Both the position numbers and the translations under genes were made by a program. From a virus, in IMG/VR virus record IMGVR_UViG_3300027896_000279, positions 1-20,475 of that record: a DNA stretch of 20,475 nucleotides; one strand, 5' to 3'. This document shows, piece by piece, positions 1 through 16,366 of this stretch; position 1 is the stretch's first letter, and each line of letters opens with the position of its first letter. The notes under the pieces are model-generated. The model was not told the DNA's origin. It made no database searches and saw only the letters and a program-made list of their open reading frames with translations.

Positions 1-431
1 CGTCGTATGCCTTGTCAGCCCGTTCGGCCAGTCATGCGTTACGAGCAGACAATGCATTGGTAGCTGATACAGTAACCAACTTTCCATTCCCAACATTCAT
101 CGCACCTGTTACTGTATATTCTAATACGGCTGCGATTGGTTGGAAATCCTTTGATTGTTCCGTTTCGGCCCTTGCTGTTCCAGTTACGGCAACCGTAGCA
201 ATTTTGGATTGTGTAGTATTAAGTTACGATTCAACTACTACTGGGTATATTTACATTAGAAAAAATTCGGGAGCTTCGGGTTATGTTTTATCGGCGTATC
301 GCCCGAGCAATTCAGATTATGCGGCCAATAGTGGTCAGGGGTTTTTTCCAATGGATACTTTAACATTTGAATATACAGCCACACAGGGAGCAGCTAATGG
401 AATAACCATCCGTCTAATTGGATACATGTAA
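1..431 (+). CDS. Fibre-type structural protein, C-terminal part (5' end outside window)
   Basis: The reading frame is open from position 3 with no stop upstream, and the residues encoded before the first possible start already continue the Ser/Ala repeat (SYALSARSASHALRAD), so this is the 3' part of a longer gene and not a 139-aa protein. The last few shaft repeats lead into a tip of about 120 residues that is rich in beta-forming residues, Tyr and Gly and ends in ITIRLIGYM. Small beta-sandwich tips of this kind are common at the ends of phage fibres. The next gene, which has the same type of shaft, starts 3 nt after the TAA stop. Role by inference: virion fibre or receptor-binding protein. 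The specific fold and target are unknown. Confidence 0.75.
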   Translation, partial: SYALSARSASHALRADNALVADTVTNFPFPTFIAPVTVYSNTAAIGWKSFDCSVSALAVPVTATVAILDCVVLSYDSTTTGYIYIRKNSGASGYVLSAYRPSNSDYAANSGQGFFPMDTLTFEYTATQGAANGITIRLIGYM

Positions 432-434
432 AAT

Positions 435-2420
435 ATGAGCCACAAAAAAGTATCACGATTAGTAGAATTGACAGCGCCTGAAATCCAGACGAACGACTTG
501 TTCTATATTGTTGATGTCAGTGCAACGGAAGGTAAAAAACTCCAAGTTACTTCTTTGGCTGCATATTTGAACAGTAGTGGAAGTTTATATGCTATTCACG
601 CCTTAACCGCAGATACCGCTTCATACATTCTTGGTAGCAATGTATATGGCTTGGTCGAATCTTCTTCATATTCATTGTTTTCCAATGCGTCGATTTCATC
701 TTCTTGGGCAACCCGGTCATTCAGTGCTTCTTATGCTGAGACGGCTTCGTTTGCCATGAATTCGGTAGGTGGGTCAACGGTGTCATCGTCGTGGGCAAAT
801 AGAGCCGGGTCGTCTTCATGGGCAGACCGTTCGGGTATAGCGCTGACAGCAAATGTTGCTTCGTCGTTGGTGTGGCCTAATACCTCTACGGCTTCATACG
901 CCATGGCCAACCAATCGTCATCTTATGCCAAAACCGCGTCATATGTTAACGAGGGAACAACATCGTATGCTCACAGAGCAGGTTGGACATCTTTATCTGA
1001 TACATCAACGGTAACTAACAACTTGGTTTATCCAAATGTATCTACAGCGTCATATGCTATGACGGCTGCGAATTTTGTGTATAACCACTACATTGATTAT
1101 GGTGTATCAGTGGCTACTTCACAATCCATTACTTGTTCTCAACTAGATTTGGTCGTTGTGTCATCTTCTATGGGAACAGCAAGGAATACAAGTATAGATG
1201 CTTATGGAACAGTCACAATCCCCTATACATCTTCGGTTGCCGTTAACGAATCGTTGAGGTTGATTGTCAAAAACAGAGATACCGGCATCGAAACCGTAAT
1301 AGATACTACTCCAGTTTATGTTTATATCAGTCGAACGGTTAATAATTGGAATGATTTGATGAGCGGCTCGATAAAAATTCCATACAGTTTGATGGGAAGC
1401 TCTAGTATGCTCGGAAATTACATGGTGTTTGTTAGTGGGTCGTCAACAAATATCCAAATTGATTCCAATCGTGTAAACCGTTTCCATTTGGCAAGTTTAA
1501 GCGATTCCTTAACCGTGTCTGTGTATGAAGAACCGTTGTTCAATTTGACGGTGCTGGTGCCTCCAGCGTTGCTTGCTTTTTCATCCAGTGTGGCTGGAAC
1601 ATTTTTTGATTCCAGAGATGGCATGTTATCATCTGGGTCTAGTAATGTTTATTACCTCAATATCAGCAGTTCGGATGTTACATCGTTGAGATATGTCTGG
1701 TCACTATCCAATTTAAGGTCTTTGGATTGTAGTGGAAACCCAATGTTGACTACATTGGCTGGAATGCCGGATACACTAGAAACAATGTCATGCCAATCTT
1801 GTTCTATTAGTTCAATGGTTTCATTGGAAAACACAACGATGTCATATTTCAACATTGGGGCTAATAGTTTGACCGCTTTACCTGTAATGCCGGAAACCAT
1901 GTCCTATTTGAATTGCTCGAATAACAACATCACATCATTGTTGAATGTTCTTCCACTTACGGCATCATACTTGAACTGTTCTGATAACTTGATTGCGAAT
2001 ATGCCCCCGTCTTTACCCGGCAACTTGACCGAACTATGGATGGGGTCTAATGGATTGACGAGTATTGCGGTAACATTACCAACTTCGTTGCTCACGATGT
2101 CTGCTTACAACAATACTTCATTGGGAACTATTGCTTCTTCAATACCGCAATCTTTGGGGTGGATAGATGTAAGTTATACTTCCTTGACATCACTTCCAAC
2201 ATTGCCATCTGGGTCTTTGATATACTTAAATGCCACAAGTTGTAGTTTGAGTTCTGTAGCAATGACTAACATTTGTTCTCAACTAAGCTCAAGTAATGTG
2301 ACGAGCGGAAGTTTGCTAATGAGAGGAAACGGACCTATTACAACGGCTACCGAAACTACTTATGTCTATGATTTACGAATGTTTTTGAGTTGGAGTGTTG
2401 AATACGATTATTCGGTATAA
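435..2420 (+). CDS. Fibre-type protein with Ser/Ala shaft and leucine-rich-repeat C-terminal domain
   Basis: 661 aa. Residues 1-45 form a short module (LFYIVDVSATEGKKLQVTSL) that resembles the N-terminal part of the next two genes and is of the kind that begins many phage fibre proteins. Residues about 48-215 are a repetitive shaft with units such as SSSWA, SASYA, TASYA and the spacer WPNTSTASYA. A beta-rich linker follows to about residue 420. Residues about 424-610 contain roughly nine leucine-rich repeats of 20-22 residues, close to LPxxLxxLxCSxNxLTxL, and a 50-residue cap ends the protein. The repeat length and the Pro-Leu start resemble the short LRR class of YopM/IpaH proteins. Start: ATG 3 nt after the preceding stop; there is no Shine-Dalgarno sequence. 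Function by inference: receptor recognition at the virion surface. Confidence 0.85.
   Translation: MSHKKVSRLVELTAPEIQTNDLFYIVDVSATEGKKLQVTSLAAYLNSSGSLYAIHALTADTASYILGSNVYGLVESSSYSLFSNASISSSWATRSFSASYAETASFAMNSVGGSTVSSSWANRAGSSSWADRSGIALTANVASSLVWPNTSTASYAMANQSSSYAKTASYVNEGTTSYAHRAGWTSLSDTSTVTNNLVYPNVSTASYAMTAANFVYNHYIDYGVSVATSQSITCSQLDLVVVSSSMGTARNTSIDAYGTVTIPYTSSVAVNESLRLIVKNRDTGIETVIDTTPVYVYISRTVNNWNDLMSGSIKIPYSLMGSSSMLGNYMVFVSGSSTNIQIDSNRVNRFHLASLSDSLTVSVYEEPLFNLTVLVPPALLAFSSSVAGTFFDSRDGMLSSGSSNVYYLNISSSDVTSLRYVWSLSNLRSLDCSGNPMLTTLAGMPDTLETMSCQSCSISSMVSLENTTMSYFNIGANSLTALPVMPETMSYLNCSNNNITSLLNVLPLTASYLNCSDNLIANMPPSLPGNLTELWMGSNGLTSIAVTLPTSLLTMSAYNNTSLGTIASSIPQSLGWIDVSYTSLTSLPTLPSGSLIYLNATSCSLSSVAMTNICSQLSSSNVTSGSLLMRGNGPITTATETTYVYDLRMFLSWSVEYDYSV
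1704..2264 (+). repeat. About nine leucine-rich repeats encoded in the fibre gene
   Basis: Protein-level tandem repeat, residues about 424-610 of the fibre protein at 435-2420. Recognisable repeat cores include LRSLDCSGN, METMSC-like (LETMSCQSC), MSYFNIGAN, MSYLNCSNN, ASYLNCSDN, LTELWMGSN, LLTMSAYNN, LGWIDVSYT and LIYLNATSC, each followed by a Leu/Ile/Met turn and a Pro-rich start of the next unit. The spacing between cores is 20-22 residues. At DNA level the copies are diverged. Confidence 0.8.
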
Positions 2421-2429
2421 GGATAAGAT

Positions 2430-3434
2430 ATGGCAAGCATACCCATTAGCCAACTAGACAACTTCACCACCATAAGGGATGAAGATTTTATTGCTTTGGT
2501 GGACAGTAGTTCCAAGACGACATATAGAGTTCCTGTAACCTCGGTTGGAGCATGGATGGCAGTTAGCGGCTCTTCTTTGTCTTCGTCTTGGGCCTCGGCT
2601 TCAGCACATTCAATTTCTTCAAGCTGGGCAAGTAGCAGTATTTCTTCGTCGGTTTCAGGCCATTTAACTTGGCCCAATACATCTACCGCATCCTTTGCTC
2701 AAAGAGCACTTTCTTCCAGTTGGTCGGACAGGAGTGGATATGCTTTTCTAGCAAACACAGCCTCAATTGCTGACACGGCATCGTATTACAACTTCACATT
2801 GCCTTCTAGCACACCACCTTTTGCTGATGCTTGTACTTCGGCTTCGTGGGCATCATCGTCACTGAGTTCATCTTATGCTTTGTCAGCGTCGTATTCTGAC
2901 GCGGCAAAAAGTGCGTCGTGGGCTAACACAGCTTCATATGCTTTAACAAGTTCACAGGCTTTGACGGCTAGTTATGTGAAGCCGACGTCTGGTGGAAGTG
3001 TAACACCTATTGCATGGGCCACTGTTTTAATACCTGATAACACAAATTACAGTAGCGATACACCATCAACTGTATTATATGGAAATATACACAACAAACC
3101 CATTGTCATAAACGGTTACAATGTAAGTGACGTTAGTTGGTACAAAAAAACATTAACGCCGAATTCAGGTTATTTGTATGGAGTAACTTTCACGCCAAAC
3201 AATCAAGACGACGCACCCAATCTATTGATTACTTTGACAAACGCTTCTTCCAACTTAAATTATTGTGTTATAGGTAGTGGAGCAGAAACCGATAACAGAA
3301 ACGAAGAAATTTCAATAGCATTTTATCCGTATCAGTTAAGAACCAGTACACAATTTGTTATATCTATGTTCGGACACCCGGATTTCGGTGGTTCTGATGA
3401 ATCGCTTTATTTTTCGTTTGTAGTTTACGCGTAA
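2430..3434 (+). CDS. Fibre-type protein, shared N-terminal module and shaft, beta-rich tip
   Basis: 334 aa. Residues 1-45 (from SIPISQLDNFTTIRDEDFIA to VGAWMAVSG) match the following gene nearly residue for residue. Residues about 48-180 are a shaft of SSSWAS, SASYS and TASYA units with the spacer WPNTSTASFAQRALSSSWSD. From about residue 190 the sequence becomes unique and beta-rich (VTPIAWATVLIPDNTNYSSD onwards) and ends SLYFSFVVYA. The ATG at 2430 is supported by an AAGGA at 2419-2423, six bases upstream, one of few Shine-Dalgarno-like sites in the window. It starts 9 nt after the LRR fibre gene and ends 4 nt before its paralogue. Likely a receptor-binding or accessory fibre; target unknown. 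Confidence 0.82.
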   Translation: MASIPISQLDNFTTIRDEDFIALVDSSSKTTYRVPVTSVGAWMAVSGSSLSSSWASASAHSISSSWASSSISSSVSGHLTWPNTSTASFAQRALSSSWSDRSGYAFLANTASIADTASYYNFTLPSSTPPFADACTSASWASSSLSSSYALSASYSDAAKSASWANTASYALTSSQALTASYVKPTSGGSVTPIAWATVLIPDNTNYSSDTPSTVLYGNIHNKPIVINGYNVSDVSWYKKTLTPNSGYLYGVTFTPNNQDDAPNLLITLTNASSNLNYCVIGSGAETDNRNEEISIAFYPYQLRTSTQFVISMFGHPDFGGSDESLYFSFVVYA

Positions 3435-3960
3435 TTTTATGACAAGCATACCCATTAGCCAATTAGACAACTTCACCATCGTTAGAGATGAAGATTTCGT
3501 CGCTTTGGTGGACAGCAGTTCCTTGACTACCTACAGAGTTCCGGTGACTTCCCTCGGAGCGTGGATGGCGGTAAGTGGGTCTGTTATATCATCGTCTTAT
3601 GCTAGTGCATCTGGGGCATCCATATCCTCAAGTTGGGCATCAAGCAGCATTTCCGCCTCCGTTTCTGGTCATCTGACTTGGCCCAATACATCTACCGCGT
3701 CGTTTGCACAACGGGCACTCTCTTCAAGTTGGTCGGATAGAAGCGGATATGCCCTCGCTTCGTTATCGGCCTCGTGGTCTGAAACAGCTTCTTATTTTGA
3801 TTTTTCATTGCCAAGTTCTACACCGCCTTTTGCTGATGCTTGTACTTCGGCTTCGTGGGCGTCGGCCTCATTGAGTTCTTCTTACGCTCTATCTGCTTCA
3901 TGGGCCGATAGAACAATGAGCGCTTCGTATGCTATTACAGCGTCATATGTTGACACGGCT
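2430..3960 (+). repeat. Direct duplication of the 5' halves of two adjacent fibre genes
   Basis: The 5' part of the gene at 2430 (to about 2950) recurs in the gene at 3439 (to about 3960) at a fixed offset of 1009 nt, with no gaps visible. Both gene starts and a 35-nt perfect match (2817-2851 and 3826-3860) lie at exactly that offset. Similarity stops where the tip domains begin. Confidence 0.85.
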
Positions 3961-4893
3961 TCGTATGCTAGAACGGCAAGTGTTTTGTTAAACTCCGCCG
4001 GGGGCGTGACAAGAAACTATGGTGGTATTGGAGGTTCGTGGCGGGTTGCGAATCCGGGTGGGGCGTTTGCAGTTGATAACGATTTGTATGTTTACAACCA
4101 GAACAACCAAACTGGTAGAATGAACTTGGTTAAAATCAACATGCAGACAAATGTTGTAACATACCTTAAACAATGGCCACAAAATTCATGGAACTGGTAT
4201 GGAAGGCCGTTTAGGAATTCGGGAGATGGTAAAGTTCATACGTTGGCATTTACAGACGACGGGTTGTATGATTACAATGTCACGGACGACACTGCTCCAT
4301 CGCTTATTTCTGCCGGTGGATATTGGGAAGATTTGCCTGTGAAAGTTGTGACTTGGCCCGCCGCCGCAGCGGGCGATTTTTATTGTTTATATGGTGGTTC
4401 CAATGCTGGCACTTACGGAAACTATCCGTATTTCAGATGGAGAAGACATTATTACAGCGGTGGTACATGGCATGAAACATGGGCGTCAGCAAACCTTACC
4501 ATCAGTAGTGTTGCCAACAACACCGAGTTAAGAAAGTTCCTCAATTTTTCAACAGACCCACTTCATCATCAAAACACATTACTGTGGGATTTCAACTACA
4601 TCAAAAAGAGATATTATCTAATGGGTGATGATACAGGCTACATGCATATTTTTAGTCAGACAACAGGTGATATCGAAACGAGCTGGCTCAACGCATCCAT
4701 TACCTACGAAAAAACCATAGCCGTTCCATTACCGAACACGGAAATCTTGTCTGACATTGATACGGAACATATTCATATTGACTATGATGTTGATACTGGC
4801 GAAGAAAAAGGAATTGTGTTGGTCAGACGAGGAAACCAATCTTATCATGGTTGTATTACATATGTGAACTGGCCTGAAATTAACAACTGGTAA
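3439..4893 (+). CDS. Fibre-type protein, paralogue of preceding gene, Trp/Tyr-rich possible beta-propeller tip
   Basis: 484 aa. The first about 175 residues align without gaps to the product of the preceding gene, at a constant DNA offset of 1009 nt, so the two 5' halves arose by duplication. After the shaft, residues about 192-484 are unrelated to the sister protein. They are rich in Gly, Trp, Tyr and Asp and contain repeated strand-turn patterns such as FAVDNDLYVYN, GDGKVHTLAFTDDGLYDYN, DFYCLYGGS and KRYYLMGDDTGYMHIF, which look like blades of a beta-propeller. That fold is an inference. No catalytic motif is evident. There is no Shine-Dalgarno sequence; the ATG follows the previous stop by 4 nt. 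Probable role: receptor-binding fibre with an exchangeable tip. Confidence 0.82.
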   Translation: MTSIPISQLDNFTIVRDEDFVALVDSSSLTTYRVPVTSLGAWMAVSGSVISSSYASASGASISSSWASSSISASVSGHLTWPNTSTASFAQRALSSSWSDRSGYALASLSASWSETASYFDFSLPSSTPPFADACTSASWASASLSSSYALSASWADRTMSASYAITASYVDTASYARTASVLLNSAGGVTRNYGGIGGSWRVANPGGAFAVDNDLYVYNQNNQTGRMNLVKINMQTNVVTYLKQWPQNSWNWYGRPFRNSGDGKVHTLAFTDDGLYDYNVTDDTAPSLISAGGYWEDLPVKVVTWPAAAAGDFYCLYGGSNAGTYGNYPYFRWRRHYYSGGTWHETWASANLTISSVANNTELRKFLNFSTDPLHHQNTLLWDFNYIKKRYYLMGDDTGYMHIFSQTTGDIETSWLNASITYEKTIAVPLPNTEILSDIDTEHIHIDYDVDTGEEKGIVLVRRGNQSYHGCITYVNWPEINNW

Positions 4894-4899
4894 ACTTTC

Positions 4900-5931
4900 A
4901 TGAAAGATAAACTCTTGTCTCCATCAAGATTCCCTTGGCTTTTGGGTTTTTCAGCCCTTTTCATAGCTTTGTGTGCAGCCTGTTTTTCCGTCTATGGTAT
5001 TGCTACTTTGTTTGCTGGGGCCACCATTTCAGTCATCATCATGGCATCATCTCTGGAAATTGGAAAACTGGTAGGCACGACTTTCTTGTATCGGTATTGG
5101 AGTAAATGCCAGAAGTTTCTGAAAACGTATCTTGTAGTAGCGATTCTAGTGTTGATGGTCATTACCTCGTTGGGCATTTTTGGATACTTGTCTGCCGCTT
5201 ATCAGAAGTCCTCCATTGAGTTTTCTGTAACTCAGGAGAAAATCAAAAACACTGAAAGTCAAAAAGGGTTCTATCAAGACAAAATTACAGCGTCAAAGAA
5301 GAGAATGGATGACCTTGCTAAACTTCGTTCTGCTCAAGAGTCAAGAATGAGTGAGGTTCTTACCAACGAATTTTTGTCGAGAAACCCTCTACAATTGAAA
5401 CAACTCCAACAACAGACATTGGAATTGATTTCTCAAACGGACAAAGACATGAAGGATGAAAATGATAAGGTTCAAGCCAGCATTGAAGAGATTAGAAAAA
5501 CTGACGGCCAAGTAAACCAATTGAAGATGGGAGCGGCGGGAAAAAAAGATGTTCAGACCTTCAAGTTTGTAGCCGACGCTATGGGATTGCCACTTGACAC
5601 AGTAGCTCGGTGGTTTATTATATCTATTATCTTTGTTTTCGACCCTCTCGCTATCTGTTTGATACTCGCTTACAATGTTGCTGTGTATCGAAAAGAAGAT
5701 GTTCGGGTTTACGGTCCTCCTGAGCAAACTCATACGCCACAACCAGTTGAAACAAAGATACTTCTGAACGATTCCAAATCATCGGAAACATTTTCGGAAA
5801 CCCCAATCATCCCAGAGGATACACCGATTGCTCCCACAACAGAATCCATTCAACCATCTCCGATTGTTGAACCTACATCTGGGTTCAGAAACAACGGAAG
5901 TTCTTTTTTTAAGCAGTATTTCAAAACTTAG
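4900..5931 (+). CDS. Four-TM membrane protein with long cytoplasmic-type coiled coil
   Basis: 343 aa, no recognised enzyme. Hydrophobic segments at residues about 12-34, 36-57, 76-100 and 238-262 look like transmembrane helices. Between the third and fourth, residues about 103-215 are charged and Gln/Lys/Glu-rich with heptad character, fitting a long coiled coil. The last 80 residues are Pro/Thr/Glu-rich and probably disordered, ending FFKQYFKT. Segments such as ASSLEIGKLVGTTFLYRYW and ITSLGIFGYLS resemble, from memory, membrane proteins of unknown role in marine T4-like phages; a database search would be needed to confirm this. It starts 6 nt after the fibre cassette without a Shine-Dalgarno sequence and is followed by the longest intergenic stretch in the window. 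A role at the host inner membrane is inferred; it could concern lysis timing, exclusion or injection. Confidence 0.75.
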   Translation: MKDKLLSPSRFPWLLGFSALFIALCAACFSVYGIATLFAGATISVIIMASSLEIGKLVGTTFLYRYWSKCQKFLKTYLVVAILVLMVITSLGIFGYLSAAYQKSSIEFSVTQEKIKNTESQKGFYQDKITASKKRMDDLAKLRSAQESRMSEVLTNEFLSRNPLQLKQLQQQTLELISQTDKDMKDENDKVQASIEEIRKTDGQVNQLKMGAAGKKDVQTFKFVADAMGLPLDTVARWFIISIIFVFDPLAICLILAYNVAVYRKEDVRVYGPPEQTHTPQPVETKILLNDSKSSETFSETPIIPEDTPIAPTTESIQPSPIVEPTSGFRNNGSSFFKQYFKT

Positions 5932-6538: not shown

Positions 6539-7417
6539 ATGAAGAAGAAAAAAGTTCTACGGAAGCGTAATGTCCACAAACATGACAAAGACCATTTGAT
6601 GGGTAAACGGTCTTACAAACATCAAAAAACCAAAAAGAAGTTGGTAAAAAAGGTCAAGGAAACCGTCGAACCCCCACCTATTGTCGTAAAAAAGAAACCT
6701 CGAAAGACGAGAGGCGCTTCGGGCAACAAGATGTATTTTACCCAAGATACGGAGAATGCTATCATTTTGTATAACAAAACTGTCGATTTGCAGATTCGTG
6801 ATACCATTTACAATGAGAAAATCAAGAATCCGTTCGAAAAGTTGGTTGAGAACATTTTCAATACTTTCAAGTTCTCTTATTTTGAAACGAGCCCGTTAGA
6901 TGTTCAGAAAGAAACCGTTTCCCATCTTGTTGCTAACATGCACAAATTTGAAGCTGGAAAAGGCAAAGCATTTTCATACTTTTCCATCATCGCTAAACAT
7001 TATCTGATTGCTCTCAACAATTCCACTTACAAGAGGTTCAATCAACATGTAGATATCGGAGAGGAACGTGATGAACACACGGTTCAACTACAAACAGAGG
7101 ACAAACATCATAAAGAAGCCGAAATGAAGGAGTTCTTGAGATTGATGATTGAGTTTTGGGAAAACAATGTCGGCAAAATCTTCACCAAACAGAGAGATTT
7201 AGACATTGCTAATGCTGTTATTGAACTCTTCCGTAGTTCTGATAGGATTGATGCCTTCAACAAGAAAGCCCTCTATCTTTACATCAGGGAAATCTCGTCT
7301 TGTAAGACCCAACAGATTACCAAAGTCATCAACAAGATGAAACAGTATCAATCCAACATTTCCAAATCATATGTGGTTAATGGTTCTATAAATACGGAAA
7401 GTTACATAAAGGTTTGA
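6539..7417 (+). CDS. 55: T4 gp55-like late-transcription sigma factor
   Basis: 292 aa. Residues 1-60 are a very basic, Lys/Arg-rich extension, probably disordered. Residues about 64-165 look like the sigma region 2 type core of the gp55 family: NPFEKLVENIFNTFKFSYFE, then DVQKETVSHLVANMHKF, then KGKAFSYFSIIAKHYLI. This pattern (a helix with Phe/Tyr, a D.Q.E helix, and the KGKA-SYF-IAK motif) is what I recognise from T4-like phages. gp55 binds host RNA polymerase core and directs it to TATAAATA late promoters together with the sliding clamp. T4 gp55 has 185 aa, so both the N-terminal extension and the longer C-terminal half are unusual, and I see no obvious clamp-binding tail at the C-terminus. 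A perfect TATAAATA lies near the 3' end of this gene. Confidence 0.8.
   Translation: MKKKKVLRKRNVHKHDKDHLMGKRSYKHQKTKKKLVKKVKETVEPPPIVVKKKPRKTRGASGNKMYFTQDTENAIILYNKTVDLQIRDTIYNEKIKNPFEKLVENIFNTFKFSYFETSPLDVQKETVSHLVANMHKFEAGKGKAFSYFSIIAKHYLIALNNSTYKRFNQHVDIGEERDEHTVQLQTEDKHHKEAEMKEFLRLMIEFWENNVGKIFTKQRDLDIANAVIELFRSSDRIDAFNKKALYLYIREISSCKTQQITKVINKMKQYQSNISKSYVVNGSINTESYIKV
7387..7394 (+). promoter_or_regulatory. 55-dependent: T4-type late promoter box TATAAATA
   Basis: The octamer TATAAATA is identical to the T4 late promoter consensus. It lies in the last 30 bases of the sigma gene coding frame and 54 nt upstream of the next ATG (7448), in the right orientation for the baseplate block. 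Known T4 promoters start transcription about a dozen bases downstream of this box, which here would give a leader of some 45 nt. The presence of a gp55-like gene immediately upstream supports this reading. Confidence 0.6.
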
Positions 7418-10952: not shown

Positions 10953-11579
10953 ATGGAAAAGAAATATAAAAGAATTTGTCCCAAATGTGAGACGGAAATA
11001 CTTTATACTCAAAAATATAATGCTAAAAGAGATGAAGGACTTTTGTGTAAATCATGTTGTAGAGTAGGTATTCCATTTTCAAATGAACATAAAAGGAATT
11101 TGAGTATATGCAAAACTGGAACTAAACAGACTATGGTTACTCGGTTGAAAAATTCAGCAACCAACAAACAAAGATTTCTTATCAATCCAGAGTTAAAGAA
11201 AAAAGCATCAGAAACATCAAAACGGATATTACATTTGCCTCACATCAGAAAGAAGCATGTGGAAGCACTATCCAAAACTCGGTGGTTGGGAAAAACATTT
11301 GACAAAGGACAATTGGAGTTTATTGATAAATGGAACAAATTAGGATTCAATTTTGAACCAAATTATCAGCTACACACCGACGATTTTTTGTGTTACATTG
11401 ATGGATACGACAGACAAAAAAATGTAGTTTTGGAATATGACGGAAAATACCACAACACCATTAAACAAAAAAGAAAAGATTTGATAAGACAAGAAAAAAT
11501 AGTTGAAGCATTAAATCCAAAAAAGTTTTGGAGATATGACGCATTCAACAAACAACTCAAAAATGTGATTGGAGAATAA
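10953..11579 (+). CDS. Free-standing homing endonuclease-like protein
   Basis: 208 aa. Residues 9-36 contain C9, C12, C32 and C35 (CPKC and CKSC), a likely zinc ribbon. Residues about 39-55 (GIPFSNEHKRNLS) resemble a NUMOD3 DNA-binding repeat. After a basic helical middle, the C-terminal third holds an apparent PD-(D/E)XK or Vsr-like nuclease core: D150, ten residues, E161, Y, D163, G and H167, followed by a Lys/Arg-rich helix (about 170-182) and FWRYDA at the end. The whole gene is noticeably richer in A and AAA/AAT codons than the flanking baseplate genes. It sits precisely between gp25 and gp6 (1 and 2 nt gaps), as mobile endonuclease genes do in T4-like phages. Similar to the gene at 15617. 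Confidence 0.78.
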   Translation: MEKKYKRICPKCETEILYTQKYNAKRDEGLLCKSCCRVGIPFSNEHKRNLSICKTGTKQTMVTRLKNSATNKQRFLINPELKKKASETSKRILHLPHIRKKHVEALSKTRWLGKTFDKGQLEFIDKWNKLGFNFEPNYQLHTDDFLCYIDGYDRQKNVVLEYDGKYHNTIKQKRKDLIRQEKIVEALNPKKFWRYDAFNKQLKNVIGE

Positions 11580-13568: not shown

Positions 13569-15620
13569 ATGCACCATTTCATTTATCCATCACAAGATAC
13601 TTACATAACCAATACGGTTAACTACCCGAACAAGAATTTTGGGTTGGATGAAATCCTGCGTGTTGGGACAAAAGATTCGTCAAACCGGTTCACTCTTGAT
13701 ACCACAACATTTTCATATAACAGTCAGAGTGTTGTTGGCCTATGTGTTTCGTTATTCACTGGAACCATAACGTCTGGTTCTATAAACGGTTTTGCCTCCT
13801 ATATTACGGCATCATGCACAGGGGGTTCAGGTAGCATTAGTGGGTCTGCATTTTCCGGTTCTGGCGTATTGAATGGACAATGGTTTTCGGGAAGTGCCAC
13901 AGGTTGCACTGGTACACTTTCGTCTTTCGCGGGTCGTATGACGGGCACCGTTACCGGACATTATACAGTGTCACAGTCACATCAAGTTGTTCGAACCAAG
14001 AGATATGTTAACCGTGCTTTGGTTAAGTTTGATTTGACAGCCATTTCTCAATCCGTGGTTTCGGGAAATATTTCCTCCCCACACTTTACATTGAAACTGA
14101 GTGTATCCAAGGAAGAAGAAGTCCCCATTGAATACTTGGTATATGCCTATCCAATCAGTCAAAGTTGGGTCATGGGCGACGGCTATTTGTCGGATGGTGG
14201 GTCAACTCAGGGGGCTAGTTGGAACTACAAAGATTACTACTCCGGAAGTTATTGGACATATGTAACCGACCCGAACGGACTAACTCCGATTGACTTTATT
14301 GGAACTTCATCGTTGACACAACAGGTGTGGAACAGAGGCGGTGGCACTTGGTACACAAGTGCCTATGACAGCCAATCATTCAGTTATGAGGTTGGAGACA
14401 TCAACATGGATGTTACCAACATCGTATATGCTTGGTTGAGTGGAAGCATTCCAAACGAAGGGTTCATACTCATTTCCGGTGAAGAAACAGAACCGACTGG
14501 TTCGGACATGGGGTTGTATTACTTTAGCCAAGATTCCAATACAATTTACCGCCCACATTTGGATGTTGGATGGAATGACTTTACTTGGACAACTGGCAGC
14601 GTTTCAACGGGAAGTGTTGTTATTTCAACCATTCCGTCTGGTTACAATGCTTGGGTTACAAACGGAGAGATTACAGATGCATCTGTTTACGGAACTTTCC
14701 ACGGCACATCAAACTACTCTGTGGATGTTAGTTTGTCGGCTAGTGGCGTTATTGATGTTACTGGACTTACAGGGTCAATTCAAAGCCGGAGAGTTTATGG
14801 AAACTTTTCGGGGTCATCAAGCAGTTCGTATGACATGTCCACTTTGGCTACCAGTTCTTATTTGCTTGGAGGTTTGTTAAATGGGGCATTTAGCGGAAGT
14901 ATATTCACATCTAGTGTGGTTTCTTATACTTTGCCTTGGGGATATTTGACTGGTTCGTGGATTTCTCAAAGTATAGTTGGTAGTCAATTAAAAGCCAACT
15001 TACCATTCCCGATTTACCCAAGCATTTATTGCGATGTTTGGGGGTCATACATATACAACACTGCTTTGGGCACATTCAACATAACAAATTCGTTGACCAG
15101 TGCTAGTTTTGATGGTGTATTTGTTGCTGGATTGTTAATGGGCGGCAAATTAAAAGCCCAACTCAGCGGCACATTTTTGACGAGTAGTTATTCCTATACC
15201 AGTAGCGTAACAATGGCTTCCATGAGTCTTGAACCTGTTCAGTTCACTCCGCCGTTTGTTACTGTTATTCAGAACTTACCTCCGACCGTTAGGGCTGGCA
15301 ACATTGTTCGCATCAATCTGTTTGCTCGACCGGAATTTCCATTCAAGAACTTCCAACGGCGGACTCAATTCACACAGTATCTCACGCCACAATATCTGCC
15401 TACCGAATCCTACTATGCGATAAAAGACAACGAAACCGACCAAATTGTGCTCGATTTTGACAACAACACAAAATTGAGTTGTGATGTTAACGGAAACTAT
15501 TTCCTTCTTGACACCACAGGTTTGCCACAAGAGCGATATTTCAAGGTTTTAATACGAAGTGAACAATCATCTTCTATTTATACATTTGACAAAGGTGATA
15601 TATTCAAAATAGTAAGATGA
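13569..15620 (+). CDS. Baseplate-associated protein with split DNRLRE-like domain
   Basis: 683 aa. The start, YPSQDTYITNTVNYPNKNFG, and NRALVKFDL (residues 148-156) fit the DNRLRE pattern (D-T-Y, N-P-N-G, then a lone KFDL), with the later parts at W-GD-G (about 197-205), a Trp/Tyr strand and VTNIVYAWLSG (about 282-292), ending RPHLDVGW at 328-335. Residues about 40-145 are a Gly/Ser/Thr-rich insertion that splits the first strands. Residues about 340-540 carry further Gly/Ser/Leu beta segments, such as LLGGLLNGAFSGS and LLMGGKLKAQLSGT. The last 140 residues are a distinct, less repetitive domain. DNRLRE domains are known as carbohydrate-binding modules. Position after gp6 implies a baseplate-attached role. 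The TGA stop overlaps the next ATG by four bases. Confidence 0.72.
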   Translation: MHHFIYPSQDTYITNTVNYPNKNFGLDEILRVGTKDSSNRFTLDTTTFSYNSQSVVGLCVSLFTGTITSGSINGFASYITASCTGGSGSISGSAFSGSGVLNGQWFSGSATGCTGTLSSFAGRMTGTVTGHYTVSQSHQVVRTKRYVNRALVKFDLTAISQSVVSGNISSPHFTLKLSVSKEEEVPIEYLVYAYPISQSWVMGDGYLSDGGSTQGASWNYKDYYSGSYWTYVTDPNGLTPIDFIGTSSLTQQVWNRGGGTWYTSAYDSQSFSYEVGDINMDVTNIVYAWLSGSIPNEGFILISGEETEPTGSDMGLYYFSQDSNTIYRPHLDVGWNDFTWTTGSVSTGSVVISTIPSGYNAWVTNGEITDASVYGTFHGTSNYSVDVSLSASGVIDVTGLTGSIQSRRVYGNFSGSSSSSYDMSTLATSSYLLGGLLNGAFSGSIFTSSVVSYTLPWGYLTGSWISQSIVGSQLKANLPFPIYPSIYCDVWGSYIYNTALGTFNITNSLTSASFDGVFVAGLLMGGKLKAQLSGTFLTSSYSYTSSVTMASMSLEPVQFTPPFVTVIQNLPPTVRAGNIVRINLFARPEFPFKNFQRRTQFTQYLTPQYLPTESYYAIKDNETDQIVLDFDNNTKLSCDVNGNYFLLDTTGLPQERYFKVLIRSEQSSSIYTFDKGDIFKIVR

Positions 15621-16366
15621 AAAAATATTTAAGACACTGCTCCAAATGTAAAAAGGAACTTTGGTATTATAGTTACAAACAGTGGTGGAGGGCTAATAAA
15701 AACAAATGTAATTGTAGGTCATGTTCCAAAAAAGGAAAACCTAGCGGTCGAGAAGGCAAAAATCATACTAAAGAAACCATTGAAAAAATTCGTTTAAGCA
15801 ACATTGGTAAACATGTAATTTCTGATAATGCCCGAATCAAATTGTCAATATCAAGAAAAGGCAAAGTAGCATCTTGGGTAACACGGACAAAAATGTCCTT
15901 GAATAGTTCTCCGTGGAATAAAGGAAAATGCCACTCAGAAGAAACAATACAAAAAATCAAGGACAAAAGAAAATCACAAGTTATTACAGAAACATCTAAG
16001 AAAAAGATGCGTATTTCTGCTATAAACAGAGTTAGAAAATATGGTGTTCAAGCTCGAAATTTCAATCCAAAATCATGTTGTTATATTGACCGATTAAACT
16101 TAATGATTGGAACGAATTTACAACATGCCTTGAATGGCGGTGAAATGGAGTTAGAAGGGTATCTTGTGGATGGGTATGACGAAAACAAAAACGTTGTATT
16201 TGAATATGATGAACCTCACCATCACCAACCAAAAAACAAAACAAAAGATTTGGTTAAACAAAAACAGATTGTTGAAAATATAAATCCGTCTTTGTTTCTT
16301 CGATATGATGAACGTTCAAATCGGTTATATGATGTCGAAACCAATCAAAATTTATCACTGGTCTAA
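15617..16366 (+). CDS. Free-standing homing endonuclease-like protein (paralogue of 10953 gene)
   Basis: 249 aa. A zinc ribbon is likely at C8, C11, C33 and C36 (C31 an alternative). It is followed by several NUMOD3-like repeats: GKNHTKETIEKIRLSNIGKH, the SDNARIKLSISRKGK stretch and GKCHSEETIQKIKDKRKS. The C-terminal core matches the gene at 10953 in spacing: D185, ten residues, E196, Y, D198, and histidines 201-203, then a Lys-rich helix and LRYDE near residue 230. This suggests the same PD-(D/E)XK or Vsr-like nuclease type. Its ATG overlaps the previous stop (ATGA), so translation is coupled to the DNRLRE gene. It is A-rich compared with its neighbours. CTATTTATAC at 15574-15583 lies about 35 nt upstream. 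Likely DNA-cleaving mobile gene. Confidence 0.78.
   Translation: MKKYLRHCSKCKKELWYYSYKQWWRANKNKCNCRSCSKKGKPSGREGKNHTKETIEKIRLSNIGKHVISDNARIKLSISRKGKVASWVTRTKMSLNSSPWNKGKCHSEETIQKIKDKRKSQVITETSKKKMRISAINRVRKYGVQARNFNPKSCCYIDRLNLMIGTNLQHALNGGEMELEGYLVDGYDENKNVVFEYDEPHHHQPKNKTKDLVKQKQIVENINPSLFLRYDERSNRLYDVETNQNLSLV

What the first reader, a model, noticed from the sequence alone, without database searches (positions are those of the whole stretch)
1704..2264. Leucine-rich repeats as a phage fibre tip
The C-terminal part of the protein at 435-2420 carries about nine repeats of 20-22 residues with the LRR core LxxLxCSxNxLT, following a Ser/Ala fibre shaft. LRRs are familiar as host recognition surfaces and in YopM/IpaH effectors, but an LRR tip on a repetitive phage fibre is unusual as far as I know. 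It may bind a host surface protein or glycan. The LRR call and the shaft are seen in the sequence; the receptor role is inferred.
Basis: partly seen in the sequence, partly recalled or inferred. Interest (0 to 1): 0.72.

Follow-up and report, generated by a model that had tools for sequence, protein, structure and literature searches.

The report
Phage tail fibre with LRR tip
A group of uncultured large phages builds one of its side-by-side tail fibres with a leucine-rich-repeat solenoid at the far end, a protein-recognition fold known from immune receptors and bacterial effectors but hardly described on phage fibres; that it recognises the host is likely but not shown.

Summary
The 661-aa protein at 435-2420 ends in about ten leucine-rich repeats of 20-22 residues (residues 405-616, window 1647-2282) plus a C-terminal cap. 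Pfam LRR_4 scores above its cut-off, and AlphaFold2 on a 14-sequence family alignment gives a confident solenoid (pLDDT 90-97 over most of it) whose nearest solved folds are SspH2, SspH1, YopM and IpaH.

The fibre context also holds. The protein has an N-terminal module shared with the neighbouring fibre genes, a Ser/Ala shaft, a beta-rich middle domain, then the LRR tip. I found 14 distinct contigs (two of 279 and 365 kb) with this protein or a part of it, in one position inside a cassette of paralogous fibres. In a tree of a neighbouring gene all ten placeable carriers fall in one clade (98/95); two members lack it. Five homologues lack about one repeat unit.

The receptor role stays inferred. 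The tip is no more variable than the rest of the fibre, the concave face is not hypervariable, and no reverse transcriptase was found. The host is unknown, with weak hints to Bacteroidota.

Best reading: a modular tail fibre whose distal adhesin is a YopM/IpaH-class LRR solenoid. This is a new variant of a known kind.

The parts
435..2420 (+). LRR-tipped tail-fibre gene, 661 aa
   Evidence: ORF; full-length homologues in 9 other contigs, partial or interrupted ones in 4 more
435..584 (+). N-terminal module (residues 1-50), presumed baseplate/adaptor attachment
   Evidence: Shared with paralogous fibres at 2430 and 3439 and with fibres of related phages
585..1070 (+). Ser/Ala/Thr-rich shaft (residues 51-212)
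   Evidence: Sequence; 38 S, 25 A, 17 T in 160 residues; kept in the family
1071..1544 (+). Beta-rich middle domain (residues 213-370), unassigned
   Evidence: AlphaFold2 strands E8-14 to E115-123 of the model; 43% mean identity in the family
1545..1646 (+). Variable linker (residues 371-404)
   Evidence: 35% mean identity in residues 371-402, range 7-84
1647..2282 (+). Leucine-rich repeat solenoid, about ten repeats of 20-22 aa
2283..2417 (+). C-terminal cap of the solenoid
   Evidence: Helix-strand-helix-strand at the end of the model, starting in the last repeat; conserved GNG...GWTV..YD motif
3..431 (+). C-terminal end of a preceding fibre gene (5' end outside the window)
   Evidence: Starts within shaft-like sequence SYALSARSASHALRADNALVADT; homologous contigs have a small fibre gene here
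2430..3434 (+). Paralogous small fibre with a different tip
   Evidence: N-module hit E 7e-25; no LRR
3439..4893 (+). Paralogous fibre with a different, non-LRR tip
   Evidence: N-module hit E 1.7e-24; no LRR

Best explanation
The gene encodes one of several paralogous tail fibres of a large contractile-tailed phage. The N-terminal module, common to the fibres of the cassette, docks the fibre on the virion (inferred). The Ser/Ala shaft and middle domain hold the tip away from the baseplate (inferred from order). The C-terminal YopM/IpaH-class LRR solenoid is the exposed distal adhesin that contacts a surface protein or glycan of the bacterial host during adsorption (inferred). Shown here: the solenoid, the domain order, the shared N-module, the fixed place in the cassette, the clade-wide conservation and a difference of about one repeat unit between homologues. 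Not shown: presence in the virion, oligomeric state, ligand and host.
For: LRR call by profile, sequence and model. N-module shared by ten fibre genes of three phages and found by profile in many more; one such gene in a related phage matches PHROGs tail-fibre families at 6e-15 (L059:6167-7714). The contig carries gp25 and gp6 baseplate-wedge homologues. Constant gene order small fibre - LRR fibre - fibre where contig ends allow in most carriers. The ten placeable carriers fall in one clade of the neighbouring-gene tree, 98/95, label clustering not reached in 500 shuffles. Five homologues lack the one ~20-residue repeat unit that the others have. In the phage repeats 55% of concave position +2 residues are aromatic, against 19% in bacterial LRRs of the same class, and the array has only 11 charged residues in 204; a polar, aromatic concave face would suit glycan or protein contact (inference).
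Against: The tip (41% mean pairwise identity) is no more variable than shaft (41%) or middle domain (43%), and concave positions do not differ from the other surface positions (0.41 against 0.35, p 0.29), so no arms-race signature is seen. No direct evidence that the protein is in the virion. The N-module has no match in the PDB and none in phage records. An LRR solenoid has no obvious way to form a threefold tip, and a trimer could not be modelled here.
Confidence: 0.7

Rival explanations
1. The LRR is a structural element of the fibre (stabiliser, fibre-fibre or fibre-baseplate contact, environmental glycan attachment) and host specificity is set by the neighbouring fibres.
For: LRR conservation similar to shaft and middle domain, no hypervariability; other fibres with other tips lie beside it.
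Against: C-terminal position after a shaft; LRRs are usually interaction surfaces (established knowledge); closely placed phages L006 and L029 lack it, so it is dispensable or replaceable.
Confidence: 0.2
2. The protein is not a virion fibre but a secreted or injected effector or immunity-type LRR protein, as the resemblance to YopM/IpaH might suggest.
For: Best solved relatives by sequence and fold are injected bacterial effectors.
Against: Fused to a fibre N-module and Ser/Ala shaft, inside a fibre cassette near baseplate genes in the complete cases; no Pfam domain other than LRR above cut-off, so no E3 ligase domain; resemblance confined to the repeats.
Confidence: 0.06
3. Chance or low-complexity artefact of a Ser/Leu-rich sequence.
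For: Ser-rich composition.
Against: Shuffles, Pfam cut-off, 21-residue periodicity and a high-confidence model.
Confidence: 0.01

Closest known systems
YopM/IpaH/SspH-class bacterial LRR domains (PDB 3g06, 4nkh, 4ow2, 1g9u)
   Same: 20-22 residue repeats with LPxLPxxLxxLxxxxNxLTS-like consensus, same solenoid; best matches by sequence and fold
   Different: Those belong to injected bacterial effectors; here the LRR ends a phage fibre, with no E3 ligase domain
Internalin J (3bz5), LRR with a cysteine ladder
   Same: LxxLxC repeats that stack cysteines; matched by sequence and fold
   Different: Listeria protein in a different architecture; its anchoring to the cell wall is from established knowledge
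LRR proteins of Bacteroidota, e.g. MAG locus L114 with PKD and Por secretion tail
   Same: Same LxxLxCSxN-LTSLPxLP repeat class; main hits in 84,980 species genomes
   Different: Cellular proteins without the N-module, shaft or middle domain; fewer aromatics at concave position +2
Modular tail fibres with a shared N-terminal module and exchangeable tips
   Same: N-module, shaft and distal tip; several paralogues side by side
   Different: The LRR tip; no PHROG of tail function matches the protein
Vibrio phage P. lipares tail-module protein with weak LRR similarity (PMC10945359)
   Same: LRR-like protein in a phage tail module, reported as the protein with the highest diversity
   Different: LRR similarity there was 10% HHpred probability; no fibre architecture described in the passages read
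BspA-family LRR protein of jumbo phage vB_VhaM_pir03 (PMC7765460)
   Same: LRR protein in a jumbo phage
   Different: Annotated as BspA/DUF285, a different repeat class; no fibre architecture stated in the passage read

Membership tests
Leucine-rich repeat proteins (YopM/IpaH class) | Tandem 20-22 residue repeats with LxxLxxxxNxL core | tested here: met
Leucine-rich repeat proteins (YopM/IpaH class) | Solenoid with one continuous parallel sheet, regular strand spacing | tested here: met
   AlphaFold2 pLDDT 90-97 over most of the repeats; fold matches to SspH1, IpaH, YopM. Prediction, not a solved structure
IpaH/SspH effectors | C-terminal novel E3 ligase domain | tested here: not met
   No Pfam domain other than LRR above cut-off; the chain ends in an LRR cap
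Phage tail fibres | N-terminal attachment module shared with other fibres of the phage | tested here: met
   Sharing shown; one carrier of the module matches PHROGs tail fibre families. Attachment itself is inferred
Phage tail fibres | Repetitive shaft between attachment module and distal tip | tested here: met
   Ser/Ala/Thr-rich residues 51-212, kept in homologues; no sharp period found
Phage tail fibres | Encoded near baseplate/tail genes | tested here: met
   gp25 and gp6 homologues 8-11 kb downstream in the same contig
Phage tail fibres | Homotrimer | not testable with these tools
   Only monomer prediction was available
Phage receptor-binding proteins | Binds a host surface receptor | not testable with these tools
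   No host known; no binding data
Phage receptor-binding proteins | Tip more variable than the rest of the fibre (common, not obligatory) | tested here: not met
   41% LRR against 41-43% shaft and middle domain; concave face not hypervariable
DGR-diversified fibre | Reverse transcriptase in the genome | tested here: not met
   No RVT_1 in three homologous or syntenic records, one of 279 kb; records may be incomplete

The most novel reading that the evidence does not exclude
The phage clade took an LRR adhesin module from a Bacteroidota surface protein and uses it as fibre tip, engaging the partner that the host's own LRR protein binds, and changes reach or specificity by adding or losing whole repeats.
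Probability: 0.15. Interest if true: 0.8.

Novelty: new variant of a known kind. Interest (0 to 1): 0.55.

Why it matters
LRR solenoids are the recognition fold of Toll-like receptors, lamprey antibodies, internalins and YopM/IpaH effectors. A clade of large phages that carries one as a fibre tip adds a fold to the list of phage adhesins, gives a binding scaffold that changes by whole repeats, and offers a direct test of whether phages recognise hosts through the same fold that other organisms use for recognition.

Tried and rejected
tblastn against 50,697 phage records with the whole protein, the LRR or the N-module gave no useful relative. The phages nearest by gp6 (Microcystis phage Mel-JY01, a 484-kb uncultured phage, Flavobacterium immuto) have neither the N-module nor the LRR within 20 kb of gp6. 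L113 was dropped: it lacks the fibre parts and reads like an F-box/LRR protein of a giant virus. A diversity-generating retroelement was considered; no reverse transcriptase was found. A hypervariable concave surface was considered and not supported. A first tree carried wrong LRR labels for L010, L109, L110 and L111 and is replaced. Host assignment was not achieved.

Full report
What was checked. The window is an IMG/VR virus record of 20,475 bases. The ORF at 435-2420 codes for 661 residues. Pfam LRR_4 hits it at 1.6e-9, above the curated cut-off. PDB sequence search gives SspH2 (5.9e-20), YopM (2.7e-18), InlJ (1.6e-14) and other IpaH-type LRRs, together over residues 426-611. The repeat motif is more frequent than in shuffles (9 against 2.9, 1 of 2000) and hydrophobicity peaks at lag 21. 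The repeats run from residue 405 to about 616, roughly ten units, followed by a cap.

Structure. With three sequences AlphaFold2 already gave strands every 20-22 residues. With 14 family members the mean pLDDT is 87.7 and pTM 0.74, most of the repeat region being at 90-97. Strands fall at protein residues 405, 429, 450, 471, 491, 512, 533, 554, 576 and 597, and a helix-strand-helix-strand cap closes the array. Residues 213-335 form a beta-rich middle domain that I could not assign.

Fibre architecture. The first 50 residues align with the starts of the neighbouring ORFs at 2430 and 3439 and with fibre genes of related phages. A profile of this module finds ten such genes in three phages and many more in syntenic contigs. 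One of them, L059:6167-7714, matches PHROGs tail-fibre families at 6e-15. A Ser/Ala/Thr shaft follows. The same contig has gp25 and gp6 baseplate-wedge homologues. The attachment function of the module is an inference; it has no PDB match.

Relatives. Direct search found L003 (53% identical along its length), and the neighbouring membrane-protein gene led to L005 on a 279-kb contig. A scan with a conserved neighbour gene (6539-7417) gave 80 related contigs, of which L015, L020/L021 (L020 on a 365-kb contig), L022 and L027 have the LRR fibre. A scan with the LRR alignment added L097, L098, L101, L108, L110, L111 and L112. After removing copies there are 14 contigs: ten full-length proteins, three cut by contig ends, and one (L027) interrupted by a TAA. 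The order small fibre - LRR fibre - further fibre is kept in most of them. In the tree of the neighbour gene all ten placeable carriers lie in one clade of 12 (98/95), the exceptions being L006 and L029; the label needs three changes against 9.4 in shuffles. One gain with two losses fits this.

Evolution of the tip. Mean pairwise identity over ten full-length members is 51.5% for the N-module, 41% shaft, 43% middle domain, 41% LRR and 40% cap. Five members (L097, L101, L110, L111, L112) lack the one repeat unit present in the others, as expected of a solenoid that gains or loses repeats. Concave positions are not more variable than other surface positions (0.41 against 0.35 mean identity, p 0.29), and no reverse transcriptase was found in three related records. 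So nothing points to rapid diversification. The array has only 11 charged residues in 204, and position +2 of the strand is aromatic in 55% of phage motifs against 19% in bacterial ones. The motif pattern and the search patterns bias such counts (the scans that fetched part of both sets asked for Y or F there), so I treat this as a lead to glycan or protein binding only.

Origin and host. In 84,980 species genomes the LRR profile finds mainly Bacteroidota proteins, with a few Lachnospiraceae, Eubacterium and Clostridia MAGs; one, L114, has a Por secretion tail. The nearest annotated phages by gp6 infect Microcystis (42%) and Flavobacterium (36%). The host stays unknown.

Literature. In the held library I found a weakly supported LRR-like protein in the tail module of a Vibrio phage (PMC10945359) and a BspA-type LRR protein in a jumbo Vibrio phage (PMC7765460), but no LRR-tipped fibre. 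A survey of LRRs in dsDNA viruses (Matsushima 2021) is cited in PMC10945359 but I did not read it, so earlier mention cannot be excluded.

Verdict. It is a modular phage fibre with an unusual tip fold: a new variant of a known kind.

Noticed in passing
window 3439-4893; L003:5534-6994: The last fibre of the cassette ends in a ~300-residue Trp/Tyr-rich domain that reads like a beta-propeller by eye; no family match.
   Followed up: no
L027:6474-6476: An in-frame TAA interrupts the LRR fibre of this contig, with the frame open on both sides; truncated fibre or assembly error.
   Followed up: partly
L006:205-9964 (contig IMGVR_UViG_3300031999_003301): In this close relative the stretch upstream of the membrane-protein gene holds genes that read like glycosyltransferase, radical-SAM and aminotransferase genes instead of the fibre cassette.
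   Followed up: no
window 15617-16366 and 10953-11579: Two free-standing homing-endonuclease-like ORFs among baseplate genes; the first named has a NUMOD3 motif (1e-6), both have only weak matches to a homing endonuclease PHROG.
   Followed up: partly
window 6539-7417: A very conserved phage protein (68-87% identity in the closest contigs) reading like a late sigma factor; no Pfam or PHROG match. At least 379 IMG/VR stretches encode a relative.
   Followed up: partly
L110 middle domain (locus 5158-5848): The middle domain carries an inserted stretch of GSFTGSVTGSFTGSISGS-like fibre repeats.
   Followed up: no
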